From: Verrucomicrobiota bacterium | GTDB taxonomy: Bacteria > Verrucomicrobiota > Verrucomicrobiia > Chthoniobacterales > SZAS-18 | Direction: 5' to 3' | Length of the DNA: 64,000 nt | Assembly (NCBI GenBank): GCA_018240025.1 | Contig: JAFEGM010000009.1 | Location: 1 to 64,000, forward strand | In this document: piece by piece, positions 20 to 56,701 of the stretch | How the letters are laid out: each line of letters begins with the position of its first letter | How positions within the stretch are numbered: position 1 is the first letter of the stretch | Notes under the pieces: generated by a model | The model's database searches: none | Seen by the model: only the letters and a program-made list of their open reading frames with translations | Told to the model about the DNA's origin: nothing | Position numbers and translations under genes: made by a program

Positions 20-38
20 GGGTCTGTCCCTTTCTGTA
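20..38 (-). repeat. RAYT-linked short repeat, copy 1
   Basis: On the minus strand this reads TACAGAAAGGGACAGACCC. It matches the core of repeats near 5.96-6.03 kb and 55.46-55.6 kb, the latter directly upstream of an intact RAYT transposase. It abuts the broken 3' end of the minus-strand pseudogene, whose reading frame runs into it. I infer that it marks an old insertion or recombination point. Confidence 0.7.
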
Positions 39-862
39 CCCCGCAAACGCGTCATCCGCGGAGCGTTGCCGCTGGAGGCTGGAGGGTACGAAGTCGCCGA
101 CCAGGATGGTGGCGGTGTTGCCGGGACGGGCCTTCCACGACGCGGGAGGGTCCCGCGTCCGCCACCCAGGTCCAGCCGCCGGCGCCCATTTTCGTGGCCA
201 CGTCGGTCCAGGTGGTCAGGTCGGGGCTGGCTTCCACGGTGTAATTACATCGAACGGCGCAGTGTTGGGCAGGTTGAAACGGAGCGCCAGACGGTCGCTG
301 AGCAGGGGATCGCCCGAACCAGTCTCGGCCTGCGTCAGCGCCAGGGGCAGCGCGGCCAGAAGCGGATTCATGCCCAGCGCGTACTTGGGAGGTTTGGGAT
401 GCCGTCGCCGACATAGGAGGCGGTGTCCTCGGTGGTTCCGCTATTCTCCAGAATGCCGAAATAGGTGAGTCGCCAATCGGGGTAACTCGTCAGCTGGGTC
501 ACGGTCACAATGTAGGACTCCAGGAGGGCTAGATCCTCCGCGTACACGTCGATGAAGACGGTGTTGATGCCGGGACTAAGGACGATGTCCGGGCTCGCGC
601 TCCCGGAGGTCACAGTCAGCCCGTTGACATAGATGTCGGCATCGGGGGCCGTCGACGTGGGTGTGACGGTGATGGTCGGGGCGAGCTGGTGACGTACGCG
701 GTGTATTCCAAGGTGCCGCTGGCGAAGGCGGGACTCAGAGTCGCTCGGCTCAAGACGAGACCGGAGAGCGTGGCCACGTTGTTGAGCGTGGTGAAGGTAG
801 AGTCCGCGGTGTAGGTGGTGCCCACGCTGCTGGTCGCGTAAGCAGGGGATCGTCCGAACCAC
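38..862 (-). pseudogene. Decayed secreted protein, cadherin-like domain plus C-terminal module
   Basis: Read from 862 down to 38, pieces of one protein appear in different frames. First comes a cadherin-like beta-sandwich stretch ('LSGLVLSRATLSPAFASGT', then 'YVNGLTVTSGSASPDIVLS'). Next is 'YVGDGIPNL', then 'KYALGMNPLLAALPLALTQ', then 'YTVEASPDLTTWTDVATK', and finally 'SSGNAPRMTRLRG'. The last four pieces form the C-terminal module shared by other secreted proteins here. Frame changes are needed near 690, 390 and 240, so no intact product is possible. The 3' end runs directly into the repeat at 20-38. No start or signal peptide is preserved. Confidence 0.75.
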
Positions 863-945: not shown

Positions 946-1079
946 GGCTGAAGCTGGACGTCCGACCTCGACAGGCGGTGCGTTGGAGGTGTCGCCACCG
1001 CCGCCCCCACCGGCTTCGATGGGCGGCGGCGGCAATTTGCAGCTTTCGCTCGGAGGTGCGCTGGCTAACCTCCGCCCCG

Positions 1080-4000
1080 ATGTTCCGCTCCATGGCTTGC
1101 ATAGGGATCGCTCGGGCGGGTTGGCGGGGCGTCGGGCTCCTGGCCGCCGTGCTGGCTCTGCCCGTCTCGGGCTGGGCCCAGACGCCGACTGCGACCGAGA
1201 CCCCCACGCCAACGGAAACGCCCACGCCCACGCCGACGGAAACGCCAGCGGAGACGCCGACGCCGACAGGCACACCGACCCCGACGGCGACGCCCACGGA
1301 AACGCCGACGCCGACGGCGACGCCCACTCCGACGATCACGCCCACGCCCACGGTCACCCCCACTCCGACCATCACGCCGACGCCGACGCGAACTCCCACG
1401 ATCACGCCGACGCCGACGCGAACTCCCACGCGGACTCCGACGCCGACCATCACGCCGACGCCGACCATCACCCCGACCCGCACGGCAACGCCCACCCGGA
1501 CGCCCACCGCGACGGCCACGCCGACCGGCTCGCCGACCTGGACTCCGAGCGTCACGCCGACCCGGACGCCGACCCGGACGCCCACACCCACGCCTACGGT
1601 CACCCAGACCCCGACCAACACGCCGACGCGCACGCCGACGCCGACCATCACGCCGACGCTGACCATCACGCCGACCCCGACGAGCACCCCGACGCGGACC
1701 CCCACGCGGACCGTGACGCCGACCATCTCCGGCCCGACGTGGACGCCCACGCCCACGCCCACGCCTGCCAACGTGGCTGCGGTCGCCTACCGCTGGACGC
1801 GCTTCAGCGGCGAAATCGGTGGCCTGGGTTCGGCCGATGGGGCGGGCTCGGTACCTCGGTTCGAACAGTTGGTGGGGATGGCCTGCGACTCGGCCGGCAA
1901 CACCTTCGTGGCCGACACGATGAACAACCTCATCCGTCGCATTTCTCCCACCGGCGAGGTGACGACTCTGGCCGGGAGCGGACGCGCCGGGTGCGCCAAC
2001 GGAGCCGCGAACGACGCGAGCTTCTCCTCTCCGCTGGGCCTCGCGGTCTCCCCGCTGGGCTATCTGGTCGTCGCGGACAGCGGCAACCGGGTCCTCCGCA
2101 AAGTGACCTTCGACGGCACGGTCACCACGCTGGCCGGTATTCCCGGGTATATTCTCGCAGTCGATGGCGTCGGAGGAACCTTCGCCTCGGCCAGCGGAGT
2201 GGCCATCGCGCCCAACGGAGACATTTTTGTGGCAGACCACTTCCTGATTCGGAAGGTCAGCCCCGAGGGTCTCATTTCCACCTACGCGGGAACGACTCCG
2301 GGCCATGCCGACGGCCCGGCCGCTTCCGCGAAATTCAATGGGGCGTCGGCGCTCGCGTTCGATGCGGCGGGCAACCTCTACGTGGCCGATGCCTCGAATT
2401 CCGTCCTGCGCAAGATCACCCCGGCAGGCCTCGTCAGCACGCTGGCTGGCCAGCCGTTGCTCCCAGGTTACCAGAATGGCACCGGCGGCGCCGCGCTCCT
2501 GGACCAGCCGCGGCATCTGATCAGCGACGTGAACGGCAGTGGCGATCTCTACTTCTCCGACGGCGGGAACGCGTTTTACCGCCTGCGCAGAGTGACGTCC
2601 GGAGGCGTCGTGACCACCGTCGCGGAGCTGGCGCAGGGAGTCGTGATGAACCCATCCGGCGAATTGCTCTCTGGCTACTACGGCGCCATCCGGCGCATCG
2701 CCCGCAACGGCCAAGTTCTCGGCACCATTGGTCTTGGAAAATACATTTCGTCTCCCTACGTCTACCCCTCCAGTCTGGCCCTCGATCCCACCGGCCACTT
2801 CTACCAGAGCCAGACCTATAATCTCGTGAAGATCACCCCTGGCGGGAGCAGTTCGTACTTCACCAATCTGAGCAGCTTTCCCAACGCCCTGCTGTGCGTG
2901 AACGGCGAGCTACTGATCGCGACGAATTTTTGCATTCTCAAGCTGACGAACGGCGTTTACTCGACGGTGGCCGGCTTGCAGGGGAACTCCGGTCATGACG
3001 ATGGACAGGGTACCGCTGCGCGCTTTCGCACGATCGGGGCCATGACGCTCGATCCGGCGGGGAACATCGTGGTGACCGAAACGAGTGGCTGGATTCGCCA
3101 GGTCTCGCCCTCGGGTGACGTGACGACCCTGGCGGGAACCGGGGTCACCGGCAGCGGCGATGGCCCGGCACTCGGCGCCTCCTTCAACAGTCCTTTTGGC
3201 GTGGGCGTCGACGCCAATGGGGTCATTTACGTGGCCGACAGCAACAATCACGTCATTCGGCGCCTGGAGGGCGGGGTGGTGACCACGCTGGCTGGATCGC
3301 CCGGCGAGAAGGGATCCGTCGATGGCGTGGGCAGCGAGGCGCGCTTCGACGTCCCCGCCAGTCTGGTCGTGGATTCGCAGGGACACGTCATCGTCATCGA
3401 CGGAAAAAGTACCGTTCGCCGCATTTCTCCGGAGGGGCGCGTGACGACGATCGGGGGCAAATACGGTCAGCGCACCACGGCACCTGGGGTGGGAACGAAT
3501 GCCCGCTTCAATGGCCCGACCGACCTCGTCGTCGCTCCGAGCGGCTGCCTTTTCGTGACCTCGAGCAAGGACCTGACCGTCATGCAGGGGGAATTGGTGA
3601 CCGGGGCGGCGCTGCAGGCTGGCAGTGTCGGGGCGGTGCTTGCGGAGTCCTTCGTCCCGGCCAATGCGGCCGTGGATCCCGGTGAAACGGTGACCTTGCC
3701 CTTTACCTTGCTGAACGGCGGGGCGGCGAGCACGAAAAACTTGACGGCCACCTTACTTGCGACACCGGGAGTGACGCCGGTCGGGCCGCCGCAGCAGATG
3801 TTTGGAGCCGTCGCCGCCGGAGGGCACGAGACGCGGCCGTTCACCTTGGCCGCGCAAGGCGCCTGCGGCAGCAAGGTCACCGTGGTGCTGCAGCTGCAGG
3901 ACGGCGCGGAGGACCTGGGACGGGTGGAGTTCGAGATCGTCCTTGGCCCCCTGCCGGTCGTGACGGTGCGGGAGTCGTTCGAGAACGGATTTTCGCTTCC

Positions 4001-5135
4001 CGCAGGCTGGTCGGGCCCCAATTGGACGATCGGCGGGAGCTCGTTCATGAACACGCGGGGAGTCCAGACGACCACTTCGTCGAACCTGGAGTCGCCGCCT
4101 ATCGCGCTCCCGGCAGGATCCAACCAGATTCGATTCCGACAGTATATTTCCATGTATCCCGAAGATGATCGTGGAAACCTCGAGATCTCGGTCAACGGTG
4201 GAGCCTTCGTCGATGCCGTCACGATCGGAACTTTCTCGCGGGGACCCTACAATGGCCGGACTTTCATCGATCCCACGCTGTGCTGGACCGGCTATGGCTA
4301 CCTCGATGTCGCCCTGGATTTGCCGGATTCCCTGGCTGGCCAGACGGTCCGCCTCCGTTGGAAGCTGGTCAGTGAGGGCCAATGGCATGTCGATCAACTG
4401 GAACTCGCCAACTGGCCTGGTCCGCGCTGCATCGCCCAAGCGGCGCCGGCCTTCACCAGCACGCTCCCGCCCGCCACCGTCGTCGTGGGCTCGGCTTTTG
4501 CGCATCAGTTCATCGCCACGGGCAATCCACCCCCGACCTTTTCGATCACGGCAGGCAGCCTGCCGAGTGGACTGTCGCTCACGGCGGGCGGCATGCTCAG
4601 CGGCACCCCGGCGCTGGCCGGATCGGCCATCTCCTTCCCGGGAATCACGGTCACGGCGACCAATGGGGTAAATCCGGCGGTAGACCAGGTCTTCACCCTC
4701 GAGTTACGCACGACCGGCCCGAGTTACCTGGCCAGCTTCGCCCTGACCGGCCCCGCGGCGGAGTTGCTGGCCGATCCGAACGGCGACGGTGTGACCAATC
4801 TGTTGGCCTACGCGCTCGGCCTGGCGCCGGACTCTGGCAATGCCTCGGCTCTGCTGCCTCAGCCGGAGTGGATCACAGAAGGCGGGCAATCTCGACTGCG
4901 GCTAGTGTTCCAGCGGTCTTCGATCGCGACCGATCTGACTTATCTCGTCGAGGCGTCCAGCGATCTGGAGAATTGGACGGTGATCGCCATGAGCGTGGCC
5001 GGTGCTGCGGCCACGGGGCCCGGCGTCGTCGGCGAGACCGGCGTGGCGCCCTATTACGAAGTCGAGGTGCGCGACCCACTGGCCAGCCCGCCCGAGATTC
5101 AGCGGTTCCTGCGCCTGCGCGTGACGTCGCCCTGA
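1080..5135 (+). CDS. Secreted NHL-propeller protein with Thr/Pro-rich linker
   Basis: The ATG at 1080 (alternative 1092) is chosen because it gives a signal peptide ending in 'SGWAQ'. The open frame extends to 978 without a convincing start. Domains after the leader: a Thr/Pro-rich low-complexity linker of about 200 residues; a long run of NHL/SMP-30-type beta-propeller repeats with motifs such as '[12 protein letters not shown]' and '[12 protein letters not shown]'; a CARDB-like beta domain ('[16 protein letters not shown]'); a jelly-roll-like segment; an Ig-like putative domain ('[16 protein letters not shown]'); and the C-terminal module '[19 protein letters not shown]' ... '[12 protein letters not shown]' ... 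'FLRLRV'. It is probably exported and surface-bound or released. The ligand is unknown, because NHL propellers usually bind rather than catalyse. Confidence 0.9.
1185..1780 (+). repeat. Thr/Pro codon low-complexity tract
   Basis: Imperfect short repeats built from ACGCCGACGCCGACCATCAC-like units encode the (T-P)n linker of the propeller protein. The period is irregular. Such tracts are prone to slippage, so copy number may vary between strains. Confidence 0.85.
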
Positions 5136-5176: not shown

Positions 5177-5231
5177 CTACGGTAGTGTCACCTGCAAACG
5201 CATCGTCCGCGGCGCGTTGCCGCTGGAGGGC
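5177..5231 (-). pseudogene. C-terminal fragment of a secreted protein
   Basis: The minus strand encodes 'DPMPSSGNAPRTMRLQVTLP' followed by a stop at 5177-5179. This is the end of the same C-terminal module family as the pseudogene at 38-862; bases 44-80 and 5194-5229 are near-identical copies. The upstream side is cut off at about 5231, where the 'CCCTTTATTG' repeat begins. Confidence 0.6.
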
Positions 5232-5240
5232 ATGGGATCG

Positions 5241-5260
5241 CCCTTTATTGAAAAAGCGCT
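5241..5260 (+). repeat. RAYT-linked repeat, partial copy 2
   Basis: CCCTTTATTGAAAAAGCGCT matches the second half of the longer repeats at 6001-6020 and about 55582-55603. It marks the left edge of the AT-richer 5.2-6.9 kb pocket and truncates the minus-strand fragment at 5177-5231. Confidence 0.6.
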
Positions 5261-5277
5261 ATAGAAGCTTGACGAGA

Positions 5278-6009
5278 ATGAACAATTGTAGACTTACTGC
5301 TTGGCCTCTTCTGACAGCAGGTTTCGCTGCCGTTGTCTGTTGCTCATTTATTGTGGACCCATTGTCGGGGCAAGATGACGAACCGATGTTCCGTAAGCCT
5401 CCTATCAAACGCTGGCCTGCGTCTGAATCAACTAGTGGGCTGGGTGGGTTGGTCGCTGCATCGGAGACCCGGAGGAACTTGCGAGAAGGCTCAGAAGTGT
5501 CTTCGGTGGCGGTTTGTCGAACGTGGAATTTGAGGAGCTTTTGGAATCACCAGATTCTAGCATAGCGCTCCAGTCCGCTTGGGAACTGGCTCGGGAGAAG
5601 GTTGTTTATGATCGATATGTTGATAATATAGCACCTCGGATTGCGCGCGTTTCCGACGTGATTGCGCGGCGCACGAAGTTGTCGGTTCCGCCGTGGTGGT
5701 TGCGATCGTTGGTAGGTACATTGATGCCATGCGGTGAGTTTTCTGAGAGCGAGTTTTTTCGTCACTTTTCGCCCCACGCTGAGGTGAATTTGGAAAAGGG
5801 CCGAACTCTGTTTGGGGGGATCGCGCAGGTTTCGATCTTCCTGTAGCGGATTTAGGCGAGGAACTCAGTATCCGCCAAGGTGGAGATAAAGGTAGGGAGC
5901 CAAAGGGGACGTTCTTTTGTTCATTCACTCGAGTCGGTAGTCGAACGTTGTTTGCGTTAGGGACACACAAAAAGGGACAGGACACACAGAAAGGGACAGA
6001 CCTTTTATT
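5278..6009 (+). pseudogene. Frameshifted small secreted protein
   Basis: The ATG at 5278 opens a frame with a plausible signal peptide ('MNNCRLTAWPLLTAGFAAVV'). Around 5440-5460 the coding sense moves to another frame ('GDPEELARRLRSVFGG' ... 'ESPDSSIALQSAWELA'), which stops at 5846. At a run of six G near 5813-5819, one extra base would continue the protein as 'GDRAGFDLPVADLGEELS' ... 'TFFCSFTRVGSRTLFALG'. That frame then runs into the repeat at 5960. At least two frameshifts and a repeat-replaced tail mark it as broken. Base composition is AT-richer than its neighbours. I do not recognise the family. Confidence 0.5.
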
Positions 6010-6025
6010 GAAAGAGCGGTTGCCT
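5960..6025 (+). repeat. RAYT-linked repeat, copy 3 (two tandem cores)
   Basis: Two cores, GACACACAAAAAGGGACAG and GACACACAGAAAGGGACAGA, are followed by CCTTTTATTGAAAGAGCGG. The arrangement is the same as the sequence just upstream of the intact RAYT near 55.56 kb. It replaces the 3' end of the broken gene at 5278-6009. Confidence 0.75.
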
Positions 6026-6029
6026 CCAC

Positions 6030-6380
6030 GACCCGGGCTCCGCGATGGAGAAAGGTGAGGCCCAGATGTGGTGCAAGATCGAGGCAAATTGTCAGCGAGT
6101 CGGCTGATGCCGACGCGATGGCAGTTCGCTCTTCGGGGCGGTAACGCCCTGCTGCATACGGCCATCGAACGCCATGACGTCCTTGACATGGAACTGCTGG
6201 AAGAACACAGACGCGATTCCCATAGCCACCAAATCGGAAAATGCAGTCCGAGACGCCCAAGATGCAAGCCCACAGAGAATGAATACGACTGGCCCTCGCC
6301 CAGAGCTCTCGTTCCGCCAAACTTCTCTTCGCACTTTTTGCAGCTGAACGGCTGCGTGGTTGTTGCTGGAGCAGTGAAGG
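6030..6380. other. Region without a convincing gene
   Basis: Short open frames exist on both strands but none shows a recognisable family, start signal or clean codon pattern. It lies inside the AT-richer pocket between the repeat copy and the DUF416-like gene and is probably decayed sequence. Confidence 0.4.
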
Positions 6381-6414
6381 TTTAGGCGAAGTTTGGGGCG
6401 CCTTCTCCGAAGTT

Positions 6415-6834
6415 TTGGATCAAGCATTCGAGTCGTTAGGGAGTGGAGCCGCTCTCCGTGCAGAGATGGTTGAGAAGTGGATTGGTCTATTGGAGCGAGT
6501 CTTGCCGGATGGAGGTGGGCCAGCTGAGGTTCAGTCGCAGTCAGCGTATATTTGTTTAATTGAAGGGCTTCGCTGCTACATTGATGACAATGTAGATTCC
6601 ATGGTCGCGGTAGTTGACGCGATCGTTGATTCCCTGGATAATTATCTCCGTTACTGGGGTAAAAGATTGTTGGTGGAGTCGACGGTTCCGGACAGCTCTC
6701 CGCTGCTGTTGAGAGAACTAGAGCGGCAATTGGACGATGTGGCGTTTTTGATGAATGAGGTGAACCACCGGCGCGAGACGCTGATAGAGCGGAGGTTCAT
6801 TAACATCCAGTATGCGGTGCCAGTGGTCGCCTGA
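6415..6834 (+). CDS. DUF416-like protein, probably 5'-truncated
   Basis: The frame encodes about 139 residues, mostly helical, with 'EKWIGLLERVLPDGGG', 'SAYICLIEGLRCYID' and 'VVDAIVDSLDNYL'. This layout (acidic helix, LP turn, SxxA helix, D-x-x-D/Y helix) resembles the C-terminal half of DUF416/YjaG proteins, some of which occur as immunity-type genes. The frame continues upstream of the TTG at 6415 ('GLGEVWGAFSEVLDQAF') without a good start, so the N-terminus may be missing. It is AT-richer than the surroundings and sits between a RAYT-linked repeat and a RAYT relic. The family call comes from memory of the pattern and is tentative. Confidence 0.45.
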   Translation: MDQAFESLGSGAALRAEMVEKWIGLLERVLPDGGGPAEVQSQSAYICLIEGLRCYIDDNVDSMVAVVDAIVDSLDNYLRYWGKRLLVESTVPDSSPLLLRELERQLDDVAFLMNEVNHRRETLIERRFINIQYAVPVVA

Positions 6835-6850
6835 ATCGGAAGTGAGGAAT

Positions 6851-6916
6851 GGATGAGCCGGGGCTGCGCACGATGCGCGATCTGCAGGTGGAAGTCGTCT
6901 CCTCCTTCGGCTGAGC
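6851..6916 (+). pseudogene. Relic 3' end of a RAYT transposase gene
   Basis: Bases 6851-6901 match 56644-56694, the last codons of the intact RAYT, with four mismatches in 51. The relic encodes 'PGLRTMRDLQVEVVS' before a stop at 6914-6916. Nothing else of the transposase is visible upstream, so only the tail survives. It marks the right edge of the AT-richer pocket. Confidence 0.75.
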
Positions 6917-49880: not shown

Positions 49881-50395
49881 GGGGATGTGGGGTTGAAGCC
49901 CGACCTATCCGTGGGCGGGATCGGCCTGAAAAGTGGCAGGGTCGGTCGGATCTTGCCATTCGCGGAGGCGGCTCGTGGATTCTGCTTGTCCGGTCGAGCC
50001 TCACTCCAGCGCGCTTGGAACGGTGCCACGCCCTCCGGCGCTCCGTTCGCGGCCAGTTCGGCGCCTCGCCAGTCGCGGAGCGAAGACGGAAGATCGCCCA
50101 TCCTTCGCGGTGGCCGCCATCTCGCGCGAATCAGGCGGATCACGGCCGCCCACCCCGGCGGCACCTGCGTCGGCCAATCCGGCTGTCGCGGAGCGACGAG
50201 CGAATGCAGCCCACCGCTTCAGCGGTGGCTTCCGGTCAGTTCCCTCTACGATCCGCAGGAACGGCAGACGGCAGATCGCTCGCGCCACGGCGGAGGTGAT
50301 CTCCACCCCGCGTTGGGAAATGATCTCGTCACGATCCGCGTTTCTGGCCCGCCTTAGCGATGCGGGATGGCTAGCGGACCTGCGTAAGTCAGGAA
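49881..50395. other. Intergenic / degenerate region before the RHS locus
   Basis: The open plus-strand frame here has no protein-like features (Arg/Pro/Ser-rich). A perfect short hairpin, CCACCGCTTCAGCGGTGG, lies near 50210. It probably holds the DUF2911 promoter on the minus side and decayed RHS 5' sequence on the plus side. Confidence 0.4.
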
Positions 50396-50620
50396 TTGGC
50401 GAATCGGGTGGCTCCGTCGCCGGACTGGCAGGCGGTCGAGCCGGCTGGTCACGGCGAACTGCCAGGCCTGCCTTGTGTACTGGCCTTGAAGGTGTCCCAT
50501 TTTATCGCGGTGCTGGAGACCGCTCCCGGCGGTTTCTACGTCTTCGATCCGCTCCAGCGCCCCAGTCGACGTTTCGTCTCCCACGAGAGCTTGGCCGCCG
50601 AGTCGGCTGGAACTGCGGAC
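50396..50620 (+). pseudogene. C39-peptidase-like fragment of an RHS leader region
   Basis: This frame reads 'LPCVLALKVSHFIAVLETAP', 'GGFYVFDPLQRPSRRFVSHE', 'SLAAESAG'. That matches the papain-like C39 pattern 'WKVGHYxAxx..GHYxVxDP...WLSxxxxxxESSGYFLVP', which precedes the RHS repeats in related proteins. It ends out of frame with the downstream RHS sequence near 50602, and the usual spacer between the two is missing. This indicates an internal deletion and frameshift. Confidence 0.5.
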
Positions 50621-53600
50621 TTTCTTCCTCCGTGGTTGCTTTGCCACGACCGGGCGGAGGGTTCGAGTTTCTGCTCCACCATGGGCAAGGCGGGCAGGAG
50701 CGGGTTTTGGCCGATCCCATGCCGGCTGGCAACATCGCCACCGATGCCCGCACGGGCCGCCGTTTTTGGGTGGCGAACGCGAACCTCGCGACGTTGGAGG
50801 TGCACGTGTTCGAACCCAGCGGAGTGCGGCGCGTGTTCAAAAAGCAGAAGCCCAACGGCAGCTCGACGGCAATTGTGCTGCTGCTGGAACAGGTGATCGA
50901 CGCTGCCGGGCAGACGCTGACCTACACCTACACCGACTTCCGTGCCGACGGAGCGCCGATCACCCCGTCCAATCCGGCGGACGGCACAAGATTGACCAGT
51001 CTGAAGGACGCTTCGGACCGCGTCACTACTCTAACCTATCTCCGGAACCCGGGGAACAACAAGGGCCCCTCTGACGAGCGACTGTTTCTGGTCACCTCGA
51101 TCAGCGATTCCGAAGGGCGCAGCGCGACGTTCACCTACAGTATCCAGACGGGAGCCACCCGCTTGCAGCGCGTCGACGACCAGGGCGGACTTTGGTCAGA
51201 GTTCATTTACGAGGCGAACACTTTGGGCAGCCTGACGAACAATGACTTTCTCCGGCATCTCGACACTCCGTATGGCCGCACTACGTTCGAGGAGACGCTC
51301 TTCACCCGAGGCGGGAATGCGGCCAGAGCCGTCGAGGTCACCTACCCGCAGGTCACCGGAGAAACGGGCCGGGATAAGTTCCGGGTCGAATACATCAACG
51401 ATTGCACCGGCGTGATCCCGCAAATCGTTCTGCCCGGCGTGATCGACCCAGAGACCATCCAACTGCGAGCCCGGGATAACGCGGCGAGTTCTGGATTCAC
51501 TCCCATCATCACCCTGAAAAACCGCTACCACCAGTATCGCCGGATTTATGTCTGCAACCGCAAGGCGATGGTGCTGAGGGCCGCGAATCCGAGTGCCGAC
51601 CCCATCGACTTCGGCAAGGTTTACCAATTCACTCACGCAGAAAGATCTTCCCTGACCAGCCGGGTTCTGGAGGCGGAGATCGAGCCGGTGACTGTGCTTA
51701 TCGATGCAGAAGGGACGGTGAGCGGTCCAACCGCAGCGACGCTGCACACGAGGCTGGTCCGCAATACCATTTACACGACGAGCACGGAGGAACCGGCCTT
51801 CATCTCCTACACCAGTCAGTCTTTGTTCGATACCTCCATCTACGCCTCTGAACTGGATCGCTTCGTCCTGCGCAAGCAGGGAGCGAACGTTGTGGACGGC
51901 TCCGGAGTGACCAGTCGGGAATTCGCCTTTCAGCGTTGGGAGCGCAACGTCTACGGCCGCCCTACGGCCACTTGGGATGCGCAGGGACGCAAGCGGACTT
52001 TCGCCTACGCGACCCATAGCAACGTTCCCGCCGATGATCCGCGAAACTTCTCGGACCTGACCGAAGAGGCGGTCGAATACCTCCAGGGCGGTACGTTGAA
52101 GCGCGACATCGTGATGCGTGCGGAATACGACGGGACTTTCAATTCCGGCCCGGGTCGACCCAGTCGGGTCTGGAACCAAGGTGGCTTCGAGACGCGCTTC
52201 AAGTACGACCGCAAAGGCCGGGTCGTCGAACAGATCCACCCGGCGCGGGCGGACGGCGGGATGGCCGTCGAAACTACCCTTACCAGCTATGTTCCGGTCG
52301 GCACGCACGGGGCCGGGTTGGTGTATCAAATCACCGAGCGGCGGATCGATCCGCTCACCGGAACGCCCTCCGACACGGTCAAGAGCTTTACCTACGACAG
52401 CCGACGCAGGGTGCGAACCGTGACGCAGCCCGACGGCTACGTGCTCACCTTCGACTACGACAACCTCGACCGGTTGACCCGCACGACGCATCCGGATGGT
52501 ACCTACAGCGAGAACGGGTATGCGTACCTGGATCGGACTTCCTATCGCGACCGCCGCGGTCAATTGACGCTGTACTATTTCAACCAGCGACGTGAACTCT
52601 ACAAGGTGACCGACCCCCTCGGGCGGAACACCCTCTACGAATGGTGCAAGTGCGGAGGACTGCAAAAACTGACCCAAGACATCGATCTCAACAGCTCTCC
52701 GGCCGTTGTGGGCGTCACCACCTGGCGGCTCGATAGTATGAGCCGGGTGCATAAAAAGAGCTACGCCGACGGTAAGTCCGAGCGCTTCCATTACGATCCG
52801 ACGGACGGCCGCTTGATTGCACGCCAGCGTGCCAGCGGTCCCGGCAGCTACTACAGGTATTGGCCGGACGGGAACATCGCGCAGGAGTGGACGACCGATG
52901 CCTCGGCGCCGACGACGCCGATCGCCCTGGTAAAGGAGTTCACCTACGATTCCTTTTTCCCGCGCCTGCAGTTGGTGAAGGAGTTTTCGGTCAGTGGAGC
53001 GACGTCCACGCTGAGCGGGCAATGGGTGATGGAGTACGGACCCTATAGCGCAGCCCCCTCGAAGCCGGCCGGCCGGCTCTCGGGGGTGAGGCGGCAGGAT
53101 GCCAGCGGCCAAGACCGCTGGATGCTGGGATACGGGTATGACGAACGCGGCCAGCGCATCAACCGGGGAGTCTTCGACAGCTACCAAGCCATGTGGGTTG
53201 GGGAAGCTTGGCATGTGGATGAACTCGGTCGGGCACGCGTGCACGACACCCCGTTGGGCACTTTCTACCGCGAATTCGTGGGACAGACGCACCGACCGCG
53301 CACCGACTACGCGCCGACCAACGACGCGCTGCGCACCGATTACGTCTATCTGGACGAGACGACCAGCCTGACCGGGGAGATCCCCGGCGGTGCGAGCGCT
53401 GACCGGCGGCTGGCGAGCCTGACGTACTGGGCGAACAGCAACCAGAGCGCGCCGGTGTCGGCCTATCGCTACGGCTATGAAGACGCCGAGGGCACTTTGA
53501 AACGGATGGATGTGGCGCTGGACGCGGCGGTCACGCTGACGGGAACGGCGCCCTACACCAAGCGGGCCGGGTTCACGCACGATGCGGCTTTCCAGCTCAA

Positions 53601-54867
53601 GACGGTCGGCTACACGGCCAATGGCGGAAGCTACACCCCTCCCAGCGGCTCGTGGACGACGGCGGAAAGCTACGATTACGATCTGGGGAGCAACCGCACG
53701 CTGGCCAACGGGGTCGCCTTGGCCCATAACAACGTCAATCAAGTGCAGGCGAGCTACGGCTACAGCTACGACGACAACGGCAGCCTGGTGAGCAGCCCGG
53801 CCGCCGGCGGCGGGGGTGTGACCTATGGCTGGGAAAGTCCGCAGCGACTGGCCTACGGGCAGCTGACGAGCTGGAACGCGCCGGACTCCGGGGGAGGAAC
53901 GAAGTCGTTCGTGGTCAGCTACGATGCGTTCGGACGCTGGGAGAAGGTAGTGGAGACCAGCGGGAGCGGAGCGACCAAAACGCGAGTGTTCGTCTGGGAC
54001 GGGGACGAATTGCTCGAAGAGCGCGACGGCAGCGACCGGGTGACGCGCCGATTCAGCGCCGGGGGCGAGCAGCAGGTGAGCTACAGCGGAGGAGGCGTGG
54101 CGAGCGCGACGAACTATTTCTACACCCGGGACCACCTCGGCAGCGTGCGCGAGCTGGTGGACGTAAGCGGCACGGTGCGGGCTCGCTACGACTACGATGC
54201 CTGGGGCCGGCGCGTGAAGCTGAGCGGCGATCAGGAATCGAGCAAGGGCTACACCGGGCACTACTTCCAAGCGCAGAGCGGCCTGCACTGGACGCGCTGG
54301 CGGCAGTACGACGCGGGGATGGGACGATGGCTGAGTCGCGATCCGATTGGGGAGAAAGGAGGGATCAATCTTTACGAATACTGTGCTTCATCCCCGCTAC
54401 TCGGGATGGATTCAGATGGCCTTGAGTCAGGTCCGGTCACAACTGGTCAGAATTTCTCTCAATCCGACTGCGATAGCTACTGTACAAGATACTGCCAACA
54501 GTACGGTGCTAAGGTGGAATCTGCGACCCTTACGAAAAGGAGTTCGACAGGCTGGATCGTTAACGCCTTCAAGGTGCTTGTCTGGCGAACTGAAGTTTCT
54601 TGGAACTGTTCGTGTAAGTGCGCTGATGAATGTCGGAGTCCATTCCTTCACTTGAAGGGGTTTAATGGAACGTGGGCTGTCGATATCGGTGATGGGTGGG
54701 CTCCGTCCGCTGACGGGCGCGCGCTACAACGAGGTCCGTGGCCGTATCCCGAGATGCTGTTTTTTGATCCAAGTCATCCACCGCCGATCATAGGGCACTA
54801 TGATTATCGTGATTCTAATGGGAAACGGTGGAGAATCTTCCCGAACGGCATGATGTTTCCAAAGTAA
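50602..54867 (+). CDS. RHS-repeat polymorphic toxin, 5'-truncated
   Basis: RHS homology begins about 50602 ('VGWNCGLSSSVVALPRPGGG'). There is no convincing start; the first in-frame ATG after that is 50719, and the frame stays open back to 49933. The body has YD repeats ('YDSRRRVRTVTQPDGYVLTF', 'YDYDAWGRRVK') and the conserved core end 'HWTRWRQYDAGMGRWLSRDP' ... 'GINLYEYCASSPL'. After 'GMDSDGLESG' the last 150 or so residues are an AT-richer tip with Cys clusters ('CDSYCTRYC', 'CSCKCADEC') and the ending 'HYDYRDSNGKRWRIFPNG'. RHS proteins encapsulate and deliver C-terminal toxins; that ending resembles polymorphic-toxin tails, but the activity is unknown. Function may be lost through the missing N-terminus. 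Confidence 0.8.
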   Translation, partial: VGWNCGLSSSVVALPRPGGGFEFLLHHGQGGQERVLADPMPAGNIATDARTGRRFWVANANLATLEVHVFEPSGVRRVFKKQKPNGSSTAIVLLLEQVIDAAGQTLTYTYTDFRADGAPITPSNPADGTRLTSLKDASDRVTTLTYLRNPGNNKGPSDERLFLVTSISDSEGRSATFTYSIQTGATRLQRVDDQGGLWSEFIYEANTLGSLTNNDFLRHLDTPYGRTTFEETLFTRGGNAARAVEVTYPQVTGETGRDKFRVEYINDCTGVIPQIVLPGVIDPETIQLRARDNAASSGFTPIITLKNRYHQYRRIYVCNRKAMVLRAANPSADPIDFGKVYQFTHAERSSLTSRVLEAEIEPVTVLIDAEGTVSGPTAATLHTRLVRNTIYTTSTEEPAFISYTSQSLFDTSIYASELDRFVLRKQGANVVDGSGVTSREFAFQRWERNVYGRPTATWDAQGRKRTFAYATHSNVPADDPRNFSDLTEEAVEYLQGGTLKRDIVMRAEYDGTFNSGPGRPSRVWNQGGFETRFKYDRKGRVVEQIHPARADGGMAVETTLTSYVPVGTHGAGLVYQITERRIDPLTGTPSDTVKSFTYDSRRRVRTVTQPDGYVLTFDYDNLDRLTRTTHPDGTYSENGYAYLDRTSYRDRRGQLTLYYFNQRRELYKVTDPLGRNTLYEWCKCGGLQKLTQDIDLNSSPAVVGVTTWRLDSMSRVHKKSYADGKSERFHYDPTDGRLIARQRASGPGSYYRYWPDGNIAQEWTTDASAPTTPIALVKEFTYDSFFPRLQLVKEFSVSGATSTLSGQWVMEYGPYSAAPSKPAGRLSGVRRQDASGQDRWMLGYGYDERGQRINRGVFDSYQAMWVGEAWHVDELGRARVHDTPLGTFYREFVGQTHRPRTDYAPTNDALRTDYVYLDETTSLTGEIPGGASADRRLASLTYWANSNQSAPVSAYRYGYEDAEGTLKRMDVALDAAVTLTGTAPYTKRAGFTHDAAFQLKTVGYTANGGSYTPPSGSWTTAESYDYDLGSNRTLANGVALAHNNVNQVQASYGYSYDDNGSLVSSPAAGGGGVTYGWESPQRLAYGQLTSWNAPDSGGGTKSFVVSYDAFGRWEKVVETSGSGATKTRVFVWDGDELLEERDGSDRVTRRFSAGGEQQVSYSGGGVASATNYFYTRDHLGSVRELVDVSGTVRARYDYDAWGRRVKLSGDQESSKGYTGHYFQAQSGLHWTRWRQYDAGMGRWLSRDPIGEKGGINLYEYCASSPLLGMDSDGLESGPVTTGQNFSQSDCDSYCTRYCQQYGAKVESATLTKRSSTGWIVNAFKVLVWRTEVSWNCSCKCADECRSPFLHLKGFNGTWAVDIGDGWAPSADGRALQRGPWPYPEMLFFDPSHPPPIIGHYDYRDSNGKRWRIFPNGMMFPK

Positions 54868-55430
54868 TGAAAGATTGCGCCTCGTACGTAACCGGCTATG
54901 CTGTCCGCTTGATGGAGGAAGCGGTGGAGCAGGGAGACAAGCTAAGCGAAGCCTTGGTTAATGAAATTGTGACGCAGCGAATTAGCATTGATTGGTTGAA
55001 CTTGAACAATGTTGGTGTGTTACCGCGTCGCTCTGGTCTGAGTCTTCCCGAAAAGTCTTCTTTGACTGAATCGTCTGTTGGGGTGGTTTCCTTGACATTA
55101 GTCAATGAAGCGATTGTTGTTTGCTTTCCTGTGGGACCAGTTCATCGCGTCTTTAATCGTGGCGGTGATCTGGAGAACTGCATACTTCTCTTAAATGATG
55201 TCTTCTGCTATGAATGCCTTCTAGTAAATGGTGATGACGACCTTCGCTTTAGGCCAATTAGTTTTTACGGTGCGGGGATGGTTTTCGTGAACTCTTCAGA
55301 CATCGGACTCAAATATTGTAAAGGACTGCACCGTCTAGATCGATCCATTGCTTCCATGGCCTCTAACGTAATAGGCATTGTAGTACCCTTCTTTGACGAT
55401 ACTAGGCTTGCGTTTGGGCGAGTCTGCTGA
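54867..55430 (+). CDS. Candidate immunity protein for the RHS tip
   Basis: 187 residues from the ATG at 54867, which overlaps the RHS stop as TAATG and implies translational coupling (a GTG at 54828 is an alternative). It begins 'MKDCASYVTGYAVRLMEEAV' and contains 'SIDWLNLNNVGVLP' and 'VGPVHRVFNRGGDLENCILL'. There is no signal peptide, so it is likely cytoplasmic. I do not recognise the family. Position, size and AT-rich composition shared with the tip are those of an immunity gene, so it should bind or neutralise the RHS tip (inference). The RAYT-linked repeat follows 25 bases after its stop. Confidence 0.65.
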   Translation: MKDCASYVTGYAVRLMEEAVEQGDKLSEALVNEIVTQRISIDWLNLNNVGVLPRRSGLSLPEKSSLTESSVGVVSLTLVNEAIVVCFPVGPVHRVFNRGGDLENCILLLNDVFCYECLLVNGDDDLRFRPISFYGAGMVFVNSSDIGLKYCKGLHRLDRSIASMASNVIGIVVPFFDDTRLAFGRVC

Positions 55431-55454: not shown

Positions 55455-55607
55455 GATACACAGAAAGGGACAACGCGGGTCTGTCCCGCCGTTCAGCACA
55501 CAGGGATACGATCGGTGTCTGGTCCCACCAACAGAGACACACAGAAAGGGACAGACCTGAATGACACACAGAAAGGGACAGACCTTTTATTGGAAAAGGC
55601 GCTTGCC
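55455..55607 (+). repeat. RAYT-linked repeat cluster, copy 4
   Basis: Cores at about 55456 (ATACACAGAAAGGGACAAC), 55534 (GAGACACACAGAAAGGGACA) and 55562 (TGACACACAGAAAGGGACAG) are followed by ACCTTTTATTGGAAAAGGCG. Near 55472, GGGACA and TGTCCC form a small hairpin. The cluster ends about 30 bases before the RAYT start codon and is the most complete version of the repeat in the window. Confidence 0.8.
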
Positions 55608-55639: not shown

Positions 55640-56701
55640 ATGCGTCGCGCCCGTCTCAAAGGTGACCCGGAGTCTCCGGCGGTCTTCTACCACTGTGTCT
55701 CCCGTGTCGTGAACCGGGACTTCGTCTTCGGGCCGCCGGAGAAGGAGCACTTCGTGCGGACCATGCGGCAGTATGCGCGCTTCTGCGGGGTGCGGGTCGT
55801 CACCTACTGTGTGATGAGCAACCACTTCCACATCCTCGTCGAGGTGCCGCAGCGGCCGGCGGGCTCGATGAACGACGCGGAGTTTCTGGCGCGGCTCGAC
55901 GCGCTGGGGCGGGAGCGCATCAGCGTCGATGCGCGCCAGATGCTGGCGCGTTTTCGCGAGCAGCTCGAGCCCGAGGCGGCCGAGCGGCGGATCGAGGAAT
56001 ACAAGGAGGAGTTCCTGGCGCGGATGTGGGACGTCTCGATCTTCATGAAGCTGGTCAAGCAGCGCTTCACGCAGTGGTTCAACCGGGAACATCGGCGCAA
56101 GGGCACGCTCTGGGAGGAGCGCTTCAAGAGCGTGTTGGTGCAGTCGGCCGGGGAGGCGCTGGCGACGATGGCAGCCTACATCGATCTGAACCCCGTGCGC
56201 GCGAAGCTGGTCGACGACGTGGAGGATTACTACCGCTGGTGCGGCTACGCGGCGGCCATGGCGGGCGACGCGGAGGCGTTGGCCGGCCTGCGGGTGATCG
56301 ACCAAGCCCGCGAAGCGCACGTGGAATGGCCGCAGACGGAGCAGGGGACGCTGGAGAACTACCGGGTGTGGCTCTTCGGCAAGGGTGAGCAGCGCGAGGG
56401 CCTGATCGACGAGGAGGGCACGATCGGTCCGGTGGGCCGCGCGGGCATCGACCCCGCCAAGGTGGCCGAAGTGCGGGCCAAGGGCGGGAAACTGAGCCGC
56501 TGGCAAATGCTGCGCTGTCGGGTGCGGTATTTCAGCGACGGGGTGGCGCTGGGCGAGAAGGCGTGGATCGAGTCGCTCTTCGCGCTGCGGCGAGCGTGGT
56601 TCAGCGCCAAGCGCAAGACCGGCGCGCGGCCGTTGCGCGGGCTGGATGCGCCGGGGTTGCGCACGATGCGCGATCTGCAGGTCGAGGTCGTCTCGGCCTG
56701 A
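55640..56701 (+). CDS. REP-associated tyrosine transposase (RAYT), Y1/HUH family
   Basis: 353 residues. HUH single-strand nucleases of this type cut and join REP-like hairpin DNA through a Tyr-DNA intermediate. Visible features: 'YHCVSRVVNRDFVF' at the N-terminus; the metal-binding HUH motif in 'VMSNHFHILVEVP' (His62, His64); 'GTLWEERFKSVLV'; and the catalytic Tyr near 180 in 'AAYIDLNPVRA'. A C-terminal helical extension ends 'GLRTMRDLQVEVVSA'. The frame is intact. It follows directly on the repeat cluster it probably recognises. A relic of the same 3' end lies at 6851, showing past copies. Confidence 0.9.
   Translation: MRRARLKGDPESPAVFYHCVSRVVNRDFVFGPPEKEHFVRTMRQYARFCGVRVVTYCVMSNHFHILVEVPQRPAGSMNDAEFLARLDALGRERISVDARQMLARFREQLEPEAAERRIEEYKEEFLARMWDVSIFMKLVKQRFTQWFNREHRRKGTLWEERFKSVLVQSAGEALATMAAYIDLNPVRAKLVDDVEDYYRWCGYAAAMAGDAEALAGLRVIDQAREAHVEWPQTEQGTLENYRVWLFGKGEQREGLIDEEGTIGPVGRAGIDPAKVAEVRAKGGKLSRWQMLRCRVRYFSDGVALGEKAWIESLFALRRAWFSAKRKTGARPLRGLDAPGLRTMRDLQVEVVSA

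What the first reader, a model, noticed from the sequence alone, without database searches (positions are those of the whole stretch)
5177..6916. AT-rich cargo pocket framed by RAYT-linked repeats, mirrored at the RHS locus
The same repeat (ACACAGAAAGGGACAGACC then TTTTATTGAAA) and RAYT sequence border two AT-richer pockets. At 5.2-6.9 kb the pocket holds a broken secreted gene and a DUF416-like gene, with a RAYT 3' relic at its edge. At 54.4-56.7 kb it holds an RHS tip, a candidate immunity gene and an intact RAYT. In the first pocket, cargo sits between the repeat and the RAYT tail, where the rest of the transposase should be. This suggests a recurring cassette in which RAYT-linked repeats provide junctions for small toxin/immunity-type genes.
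Basis: partly seen in the sequence, partly recalled or inferred. Interest (0 to 1): 0.8.

Follow-up and report, generated by a model that had tools for sequence, protein, structure and literature searches.

The report
Mobile transposase trailing RHS toxin cassettes
The shared repeat is simply the front end of a small mobile gene (a RAYT-type transposase); in this bacterium and several relatives that mobile gene repeatedly sits, in the same direction, right behind RHS toxin–immunity gene pairs, whereas the first AT-rich pocket flagged here is mostly decayed debris around one broken copy of it.

Summary
The repeat is real, and pockets 5.2-6.9 kb and 54.3-55.8 kb are the only stretches of the 64 kb window below 56% GC. 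But the repeat is not a separate junction: it is the left end of a RAYT/TIRYT unit (hairpin with a GGGACAG core, 54-71 bp before the start codon), found in most relatives. The own genome has three intact near-identical RAYTs, plus truncated copies and a few solo left ends, several away from RHS. Pocket 1 is one RAYT derivative with both ends present and the interior replaced by degraded orphan DNA, behind a frameshifted secreted ORF; 'DUF416' is not supported by sequence, and no RHS lies near. Pocket 2 is the informative one: RHS core, variable tip, small ORF, RAYT. All 3 intact RAYTs have this layout, beside 3 of only 5 RHS genes, and it recurs in six other Verrucomicrobiota genomes (10 cases in 30 genomes against about 0.19 expected, all co-directional; at least 5 changes on the RAYT tree), plus one case with a different RAYT subfamily. 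It parallels E. coli rhs/H-rpt with an unrelated transposase. Cargo mobilisation is not shown.

The parts
21..39 (-). solo left-end repeat, 2 mismatches, at the contig start
5241..5259 (+). fragment of a RAYT left end (CCCTTTATTGAAAAAGCGC)
5278..5846 (+). broken ORF with signal-peptide-like N-terminus, frameshifted; no family match
5965..6026 (+). left end of a RAYT unit, tandem (degenerate copy 5965-5983, exact copy 5984-6002) plus following 5' leader to about 6026
6027..6282 (+). unassigned DNA, no open gene
6850..6901 (+). 3' end of a RAYT gene, reaching the point where the other genomic copies diverge (GTCGTCTC)
49933..54867 (+). RHS gene; TIGR03696 core at 54193-54423; variable tip about 54424-54867 (weak Ntox37, E=0.055)
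54867..55430 (+). small ORF overlapping the RHS stop (TAATG), candidate immunity gene, no family match
55458..55592 (+). three left-end repeats: partial 55458-55476, exact 55539-55557 and 55566-55592 (the last is the left end of the intact RAYT)
55640..56701 (+). intact RAYT (Y1_Tnp PF01797; HUH motif HFH, catalytic Tyr in AAYIDLNPVRA), 353 aa; unit ends within the last codons

Best explanation
The repeat is the left end of a mobile RAYT/TIRYT unit: one HUH (Y1) transposase gene with a subterminal GGGACAG hairpin about 60 bp before its start, ending within its last codons. The unit moves within the genome. A recurrent place where it lands and is kept is the 3' end of RHS toxin loci, just behind the gene that follows the RHS tip, and always reading in the RHS direction. 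The AT-richness of pocket 2 belongs to the exchangeable tip and presumed immunity gene, not to the RAYT. Pocket 1 is an old RAYT insertion whose interior has been lost and replaced by degraded orphan DNA. Shown: the unit's ends, its multiple copies, and the RHS-tip-ORF-RAYT order with its statistics and orientation bias. Inferred: transposition by single-strand HUH chemistry; landing at RHS 3' ends (a tolerated sink, perhaps a preferred hairpin or terminator-like target); a possible side effect that RAYT copies give RHS loci a shared downstream homology arm across which tip-immunity segments can be swapped.
For: Left end: within-genome copies share sequence from about -65..-75 and diverge outside it in most of 12 genomes compared; GGGACAG/CTGTCCC lies within 120 bp upstream in 46 of 73 RAYT loci, against 3.3% of distant 250-bp windows. 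Right end: five own copies and pocket 1 diverge right after GTCGTCTC. Multi-copy: own units are 91-95% identical in DNA while their RHS neighbours are only 25-34% identical in protein, so the RAYT insertions are younger than the RHS genes. Association: RHS cores in the own genome number 5, and 3 of 3 intact RAYTs lie 1.2-1.9 kb downstream of one; in 30 genomes, 10 pairs downstream on the same strand against 0.19 expected, 0 downstream opposed, 1 upstream same, 1 upstream opposed; orientation 10/10, p=0.002, or 7/7 genomes, p=0.016. At least 5 changes of state on the RAYT tree. A different RAYT subfamily shows the same layout (L164). In C1_MAG_00039 two loci keep the RHS core (85%) and RAYT (94.6%) while the 1.9 kb between is unrelated at the DNA level.
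Against: RHS linkage is a minority habit of this RAYT family (6 of 72 loci). Other transposases (IS110, IS4 types) also fall behind RHS genes more than chance (2 of 100 against 0.24 expected), and the excess of RAYT over them is not significant (p=0.05-0.13). The 30-genome set was chosen among RAYT carriers and included every genome in which linkage had been seen, so the p-value is optimistic; contig ends are not corrected for. No empty site could be compared: xseA is present in relatives but the upstream gene was not found beside it. The own copies show no inverted repeat at the right end.
Confidence: 0.74

Rival explanations
1. RHS 3' ends are merely a sink for any insertion sequence, because insertions there harm nothing; RAYTs are common and so are often seen there.
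For: IS110/IS4-type transposases are also enriched behind RHS genes (2 observed, 0.24 expected); the fourth own-genome RHS locus (C80) is followed by DNA that reads like an ISL3-type transposase fragment (read by eye). RAYT against other IS is not significant (p=0.13).
Against: A passive sink predicts both orientations; all 10 downstream RAYTs are co-directional (p=0.002; 7/7 by genome, p=0.016), while RAYTs at large show 31 co-directional and 31 opposed upstream ORFs.
Confidence: 0.45
2. The RAYT is a working part of the RHS cassette system: it excises or circularises tip-immunity DNA, or supplies the downstream arm for tip exchange, as proposed circles do in the model of C-terminal displacement.
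For: Recurrent order and orientation in 7 genomes plus L164; conserved core and conserved RAYT around unrelated tips in L073/L074; an orphan RHS C-terminal fragment whose open frame starts at a solo left end and which is followed by an ORF and a RAYT (L071); E. coli rhsC has the same layout with its H-rpt transposase.
Against: No excess of left ends on the far side of cargo; most RAYTs have no RHS; no circle, empty site or swap was seen.
Confidence: 0.15
3. Pocket 1 is a genuine non-autonomous cargo element: left end, passenger gene, right end, moved by RAYTs elsewhere in the genome.
For: Left end and right end both reach the points where other copies diverge, with about 820 bp of foreign AT-rich DNA between.
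Against: The passenger ORF lacks a usual start codon and has no convincing relative in 286 genomes of the class nor a second copy in the own genome; the C53 relic shows that simple truncation also occurs.
Confidence: 0.12

Closest known systems
TIRYT/TIRtron: RAYT-like Y1 transposases with flanking repeats sharing GGGGWSAS (Di Nocera et al. 2013, PMC3733652; TnpAREP subclass 2.1 in PMC6006769)
   Same: RAYT-like Y1 protein with a conserved flanking repeat whose core (A/G)GGGACAG fits or nearly fits GGGGWSAS, at a fixed distance from the gene; solo and tandem copies of the repeat elsewhere.
   Different: In the own copies only the left repeat is evident, no inverted partner within 250 bp downstream; copies are numerous and near-identical, whereas Nunvar et al. 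2010 (PMC2817692) found no IS-like multicopy mobility for RAYTs; repeated placement behind RHS genes is not mentioned in the passages read.
E. coli Rhs elements with H-repeat (H-rpt) transposase remnants (PMC3032704; rhsC locus)
   Same: Order RHS gene, small ORF behind the tip, orphan rhs pieces, then a transposase gene, all on one strand.
   Different: H-rpt is an ISAs1-type (DDE) element by general knowledge; here the transposase is an HUH RAYT, intact and multi-copy.
Rhs C-terminal displacement (Jackson et al. 2009, PMC2935791)
   Same: Conserved RHS core with unrelated tips and orphan core-tip fragments.
   Different: That model uses homologous recombination through circles, with no transposase (no mention of transposase); here a shared RAYT lies on the far side of the tip segment.
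Polymorphic toxin systems (Zhang et al. 2012, PMC3482391)
   Same: RHS carrier with exchangeable C-terminal domain followed by an immunity-type gene.
   Different: The one mention of 'transposase' in the held text concerns an unrelated domain.

Membership tests
RAYT / Y1 transposase family | Y1 (HUH) transposase domain with HUH motif and catalytic tyrosine | tested here: met
   PF01797 E=2.2e-12; HFH and Y in AAYIDLNPVRA invariant in 7 aligned members
RAYT / Y1 transposase family | Match to the curated RAYT model over its cut-off | tested here: not met
   NF047646 REP_Tyr_transpos 58.4 bits, cut-off 80: related, below equivalog level; I therefore call it RAYT-like/TIRYT-like in the broad sense
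RAYT (Nunvar 2010) | Gene flanked by two inverted REPs | tested here: inconclusive
   Left repeat in 46 of 73 loci; inverted partner within 250 bp downstream in 8 of 57, none in the own copies
TIRYT | Flanking repeats with GGGGWSAS motif | tested here: inconclusive
   (A/G)GGGACAG at the left end, one mismatch in own copies, exact in some relatives; right-hand partner missing in own copies
RHS polymorphic toxin | RHS repeats and RHS-associated core domain followed by a variable tip | tested here: met
   PF05593 and TIGR03696 (71.7 bits, cut-off 32.5) in the window gene
RHS polymorphic toxin | Cognate immunity protein encoded behind the tip | not testable with these tools
   ORF 54867-55430 is in the right place, no family match; function untested
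Ntox37 toxin domain | Tip matches the family model | tested here: inconclusive
   PF15535 E=0.055, 14.5 bits, cut-off 27.8
DUF416 (PF04222) | Sequence match of ORF 6283-6834 | tested here: not met
   no Pfam hit up to E=10; no PDB sequence hit

The most novel reading that the evidence does not exclude
RAYT/TIRYT units act in Verrucomicrobiota as the counterpart of the E. coli H-rpt: a HUH single-strand transposase that is selectively kept behind RHS loci because it helps to move or exchange tip-immunity cassettes, through shared RAYT homology or transposase-made circles.
Probability: 0.12. Interest if true: 0.75.

Novelty: new variant of a known kind. Interest (0 to 1): 0.42.

Why it matters
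How RHS tips and their immunity genes are exchanged is still a model without an identified enzyme. A mobile HUH transposase that repeatedly sits on the far side of the tip cassette, in one orientation, in several lineages gives a concrete, testable candidate for a shared boundary, and parallels the long-unexplained H-rpt in E. coli. Even if it is only a tolerated landing site, it shows RAYT-type genes spreading as multi-copy mobile units, which early work on RAYTs did not see.

Tried and rejected
DUF416: rejected on sequence; the fold model is too poor to use. A hit in G245 was spurious. Composite 'left end - cargo - RAYT' elements: no general excess of solo left ends upstream of RAYTs beyond 150 bp (8 upstream same, 6 upstream opposed, 5 downstream same, 11 downstream opposed); only L071 looks like it. 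RAYTs in general being preceded by co-directional AT-rich cargo: rejected (31 against 31; GC dip 3.7 points, against 12 for RHS-linked). Empty-site comparison at the xseA locus: relatives share xseA but the upstream gene was not found within the 1.5 kb fetched; no AT-rich dip upstream of xseA in two same-genus genomes. Fold of the candidate immunity ORF: pLDDT 36, unusable. Papers joining RAYT or Y1 transposase with Rhs: none held.

Full report
What was claimed. Two AT-richer pockets (5.2-6.9 kb and 54.4-56.7 kb) were said to be framed by the same repeat and by RAYT sequence, with small toxin/immunity-type cargo between, suggesting a recurring cassette.

The observation. The repeat ACACAGAAAGGGACAGACC is exact at 5984, 55539 and 55566, with degenerate copies at 21(-), 5965 and 55458; shuffles give none. 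In 550-bp windows the only stretches below 56% GC in the 64 kb are the two pockets. A 52-bp RAYT tail lies at 6850-6901. The intact gene at 55640-56701 is a Y1 transposase (PF01797, E=2e-12), related to but below the cut-off of the curated RAYT model. The secreted ORF at 5278 is frameshifted. The DUF416 call has no sequence support.

What the repeat is. The own genome (6.3 Mb, 121 contigs) has three intact RAYTs, one cut by a contig end and one short relic, beside the window's own relic. Comparing them, and multiple copies within a dozen other genomes, shows where similarity starts and ends: in most, about 65-75 bp before the start codon, and within the last codons or soon after them (longer leaders of about 150-215 bp in four groups). 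The left end carries GGGACAG or its complement within 120 bp upstream in 46 of 73 loci, against 3.3% of distant windows. In own copies it can fold as AAAGG-GACAGA-CCTTT, though folding is not better than shuffles by a significant margin. So the repeat plus TTTTATTGAAA is the left end of a RAYT unit, of the kind called TIRYT (GGGGWSAS motif; PMC3733652, PMC6006769). Solo left ends occur at C30, C69, C94, C53 and the contig start, without a RHS core beside them.

Pocket 1. It has a tandem left end (5965-6026) and a RAYT 3' end (6850-6901), both reaching the points where other copies stop resembling each other. The RAYT interior is missing; about 820 bp of unrelated DNA lies there, including an open frame without a usual start codon and without convincing relatives in 286 genomes. 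Upstream are a broken secreted ORF and a left-end fragment at 5241. The nearest RHS is about 43 kb away. I read this as decay and replacement inside an old insertion in the intergenic space before xseA; a passenger-carrying non-autonomous element is possible but unsupported by any second copy.

Pocket 2 and its recurrence. The order is RHS core (54193-54423), tip, a small ORF overlapping the RHS stop (TAATG at 54867), left ends, RAYT. The own genome has only five RHS cores, and all three intact RAYTs lie 1.2-1.9 kb behind one of them on the same strand, each after a different tip and small ORF. The C77 tip weakly resembles lipase families and is followed by a signal-peptide ORF weakly resembling DUF6795. 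The three RHS proteins share only 25-34% identity while the RAYT units share 91-95% of their DNA, so the RAYTs arrived separately and later.

Of 72 RAYT loci in other genomes, chosen without regard to RHS, six have an RHS core upstream on the same strand within 2 kb, against three RHS cores anywhere else in about 0.9 Mb of flank. In 30 genomes with RHS and RAYT both mapped (plus own), 10 of 155 RAYTs lie behind an RHS gene on the same strand, 0.19 expected; other configurations 0, 1 and 1. That set included every genome where linkage had been seen, so the probability is optimistic. On the RAYT tree the linkage needs at least five changes. A RAYT of another subfamily shows the same layout with a GGGTCAG left end (L164). 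In C1_MAG_00039, two loci keep the RHS core (85%) and the RAYT (94.6%) while the tip and small ORF between them do not align as DNA. GC falls by 12 points in the kilobase upstream of RHS-linked RAYTs and by 4 in others: the AT-richness belongs to tip and immunity-type DNA.

Controls. IS110- and IS4-type transposases behind RHS: 2 of 100, one in each orientation, 0.24 expected. So RHS 3' ends attract insertions in general; RAYT's excess over these is not significant, but its orientation bias (10 of 10, or 7 of 7 genomes) is unexplained by a passive sink. RAYTs at large have no orientation preference relative to their upstream ORF (crude ORF calling). Upstream solo left ends are not in excess.

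Mechanism. Shown: unit ends, multi-copy spread, order and orientation behind RHS loci. Inferred: HUH single-strand transposition; landing just behind the RHS-tip-ORF operon, where a hairpin may serve as target or the insertion is harmless; and, as a side effect, a shared downstream homology arm for exchange of tip cassettes. Probabilities that I give: landing and retention as the main cause 0.74; active role in exchange about 0.15. The passive-sink rival (0.45) is a narrower reading of the same landing-and-retention model, so these numbers are not exclusive.

Comparison with the known. The layout is that of E. coli rhsC-ybfB-ybfO-ybfC followed by H-rpt transposase remnants, all on one strand (H-rpt in PMC3032704), with an unrelated transposase type. 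The model of C-terminal displacement (PMC2935791) invokes recombination and circles but names no transposase. No held paper joins RAYT or Y1 transposase with Rhs; this covers only open-licence papers. Earlier RAYT work reported no IS-like multi-copy mobility (PMC2817692); here copies are many (about 40 in each of three genomes).

Verdict.

Noticed in passing
L040:8576-13921 (own genome C77): The RHS protein carries an inserted stretch (about residues 1147-1241) matching a putidacin-like lectin bacteriocin model (72.8 bits, below cut-off) and B_lectin.
   Followed up: no
L062 (own genome C80), RHS tip region: The fourth RHS gene's C-terminal region reads like a Hint-type self-processing domain before the tip, and the locus ends in DNA resembling an ISL3-type transposase, not a RAYT (read by eye).
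   Followed up: partly
L071:4187-4342: A solo RAYT left end sits inside an RHS fragment between two copies of a 59-bp direct repeat of host sequence, as if its arrival duplicated the target.
   Followed up: partly
G322, G326, G328 (genomes of L096, L107, L110): About 40 matches to the RAYT model per genome, an expansion far beyond the own genome's handful.
   Followed up: no
L074:11417-12022: Downstream of the RAYT lie fragments repeating the sequence at the start of the sister locus's RHS fragment (L073), as expected for displaced RHS pieces.
   Followed up: partly
window 978-5135: Large gene with NHL/teneurin-type repeats directly before pocket 1; a 39-bp stretch just after it (5191-5229) recurs at window 40-78 beside a solo left end.
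   Followed up: no
contig ends C5, C94, C121 start, G001 C28 and C39: Many contigs break at or beside RAYT units or left ends, so RAYT and RHS linkage is under-counted in draft assemblies.
   Followed up: no
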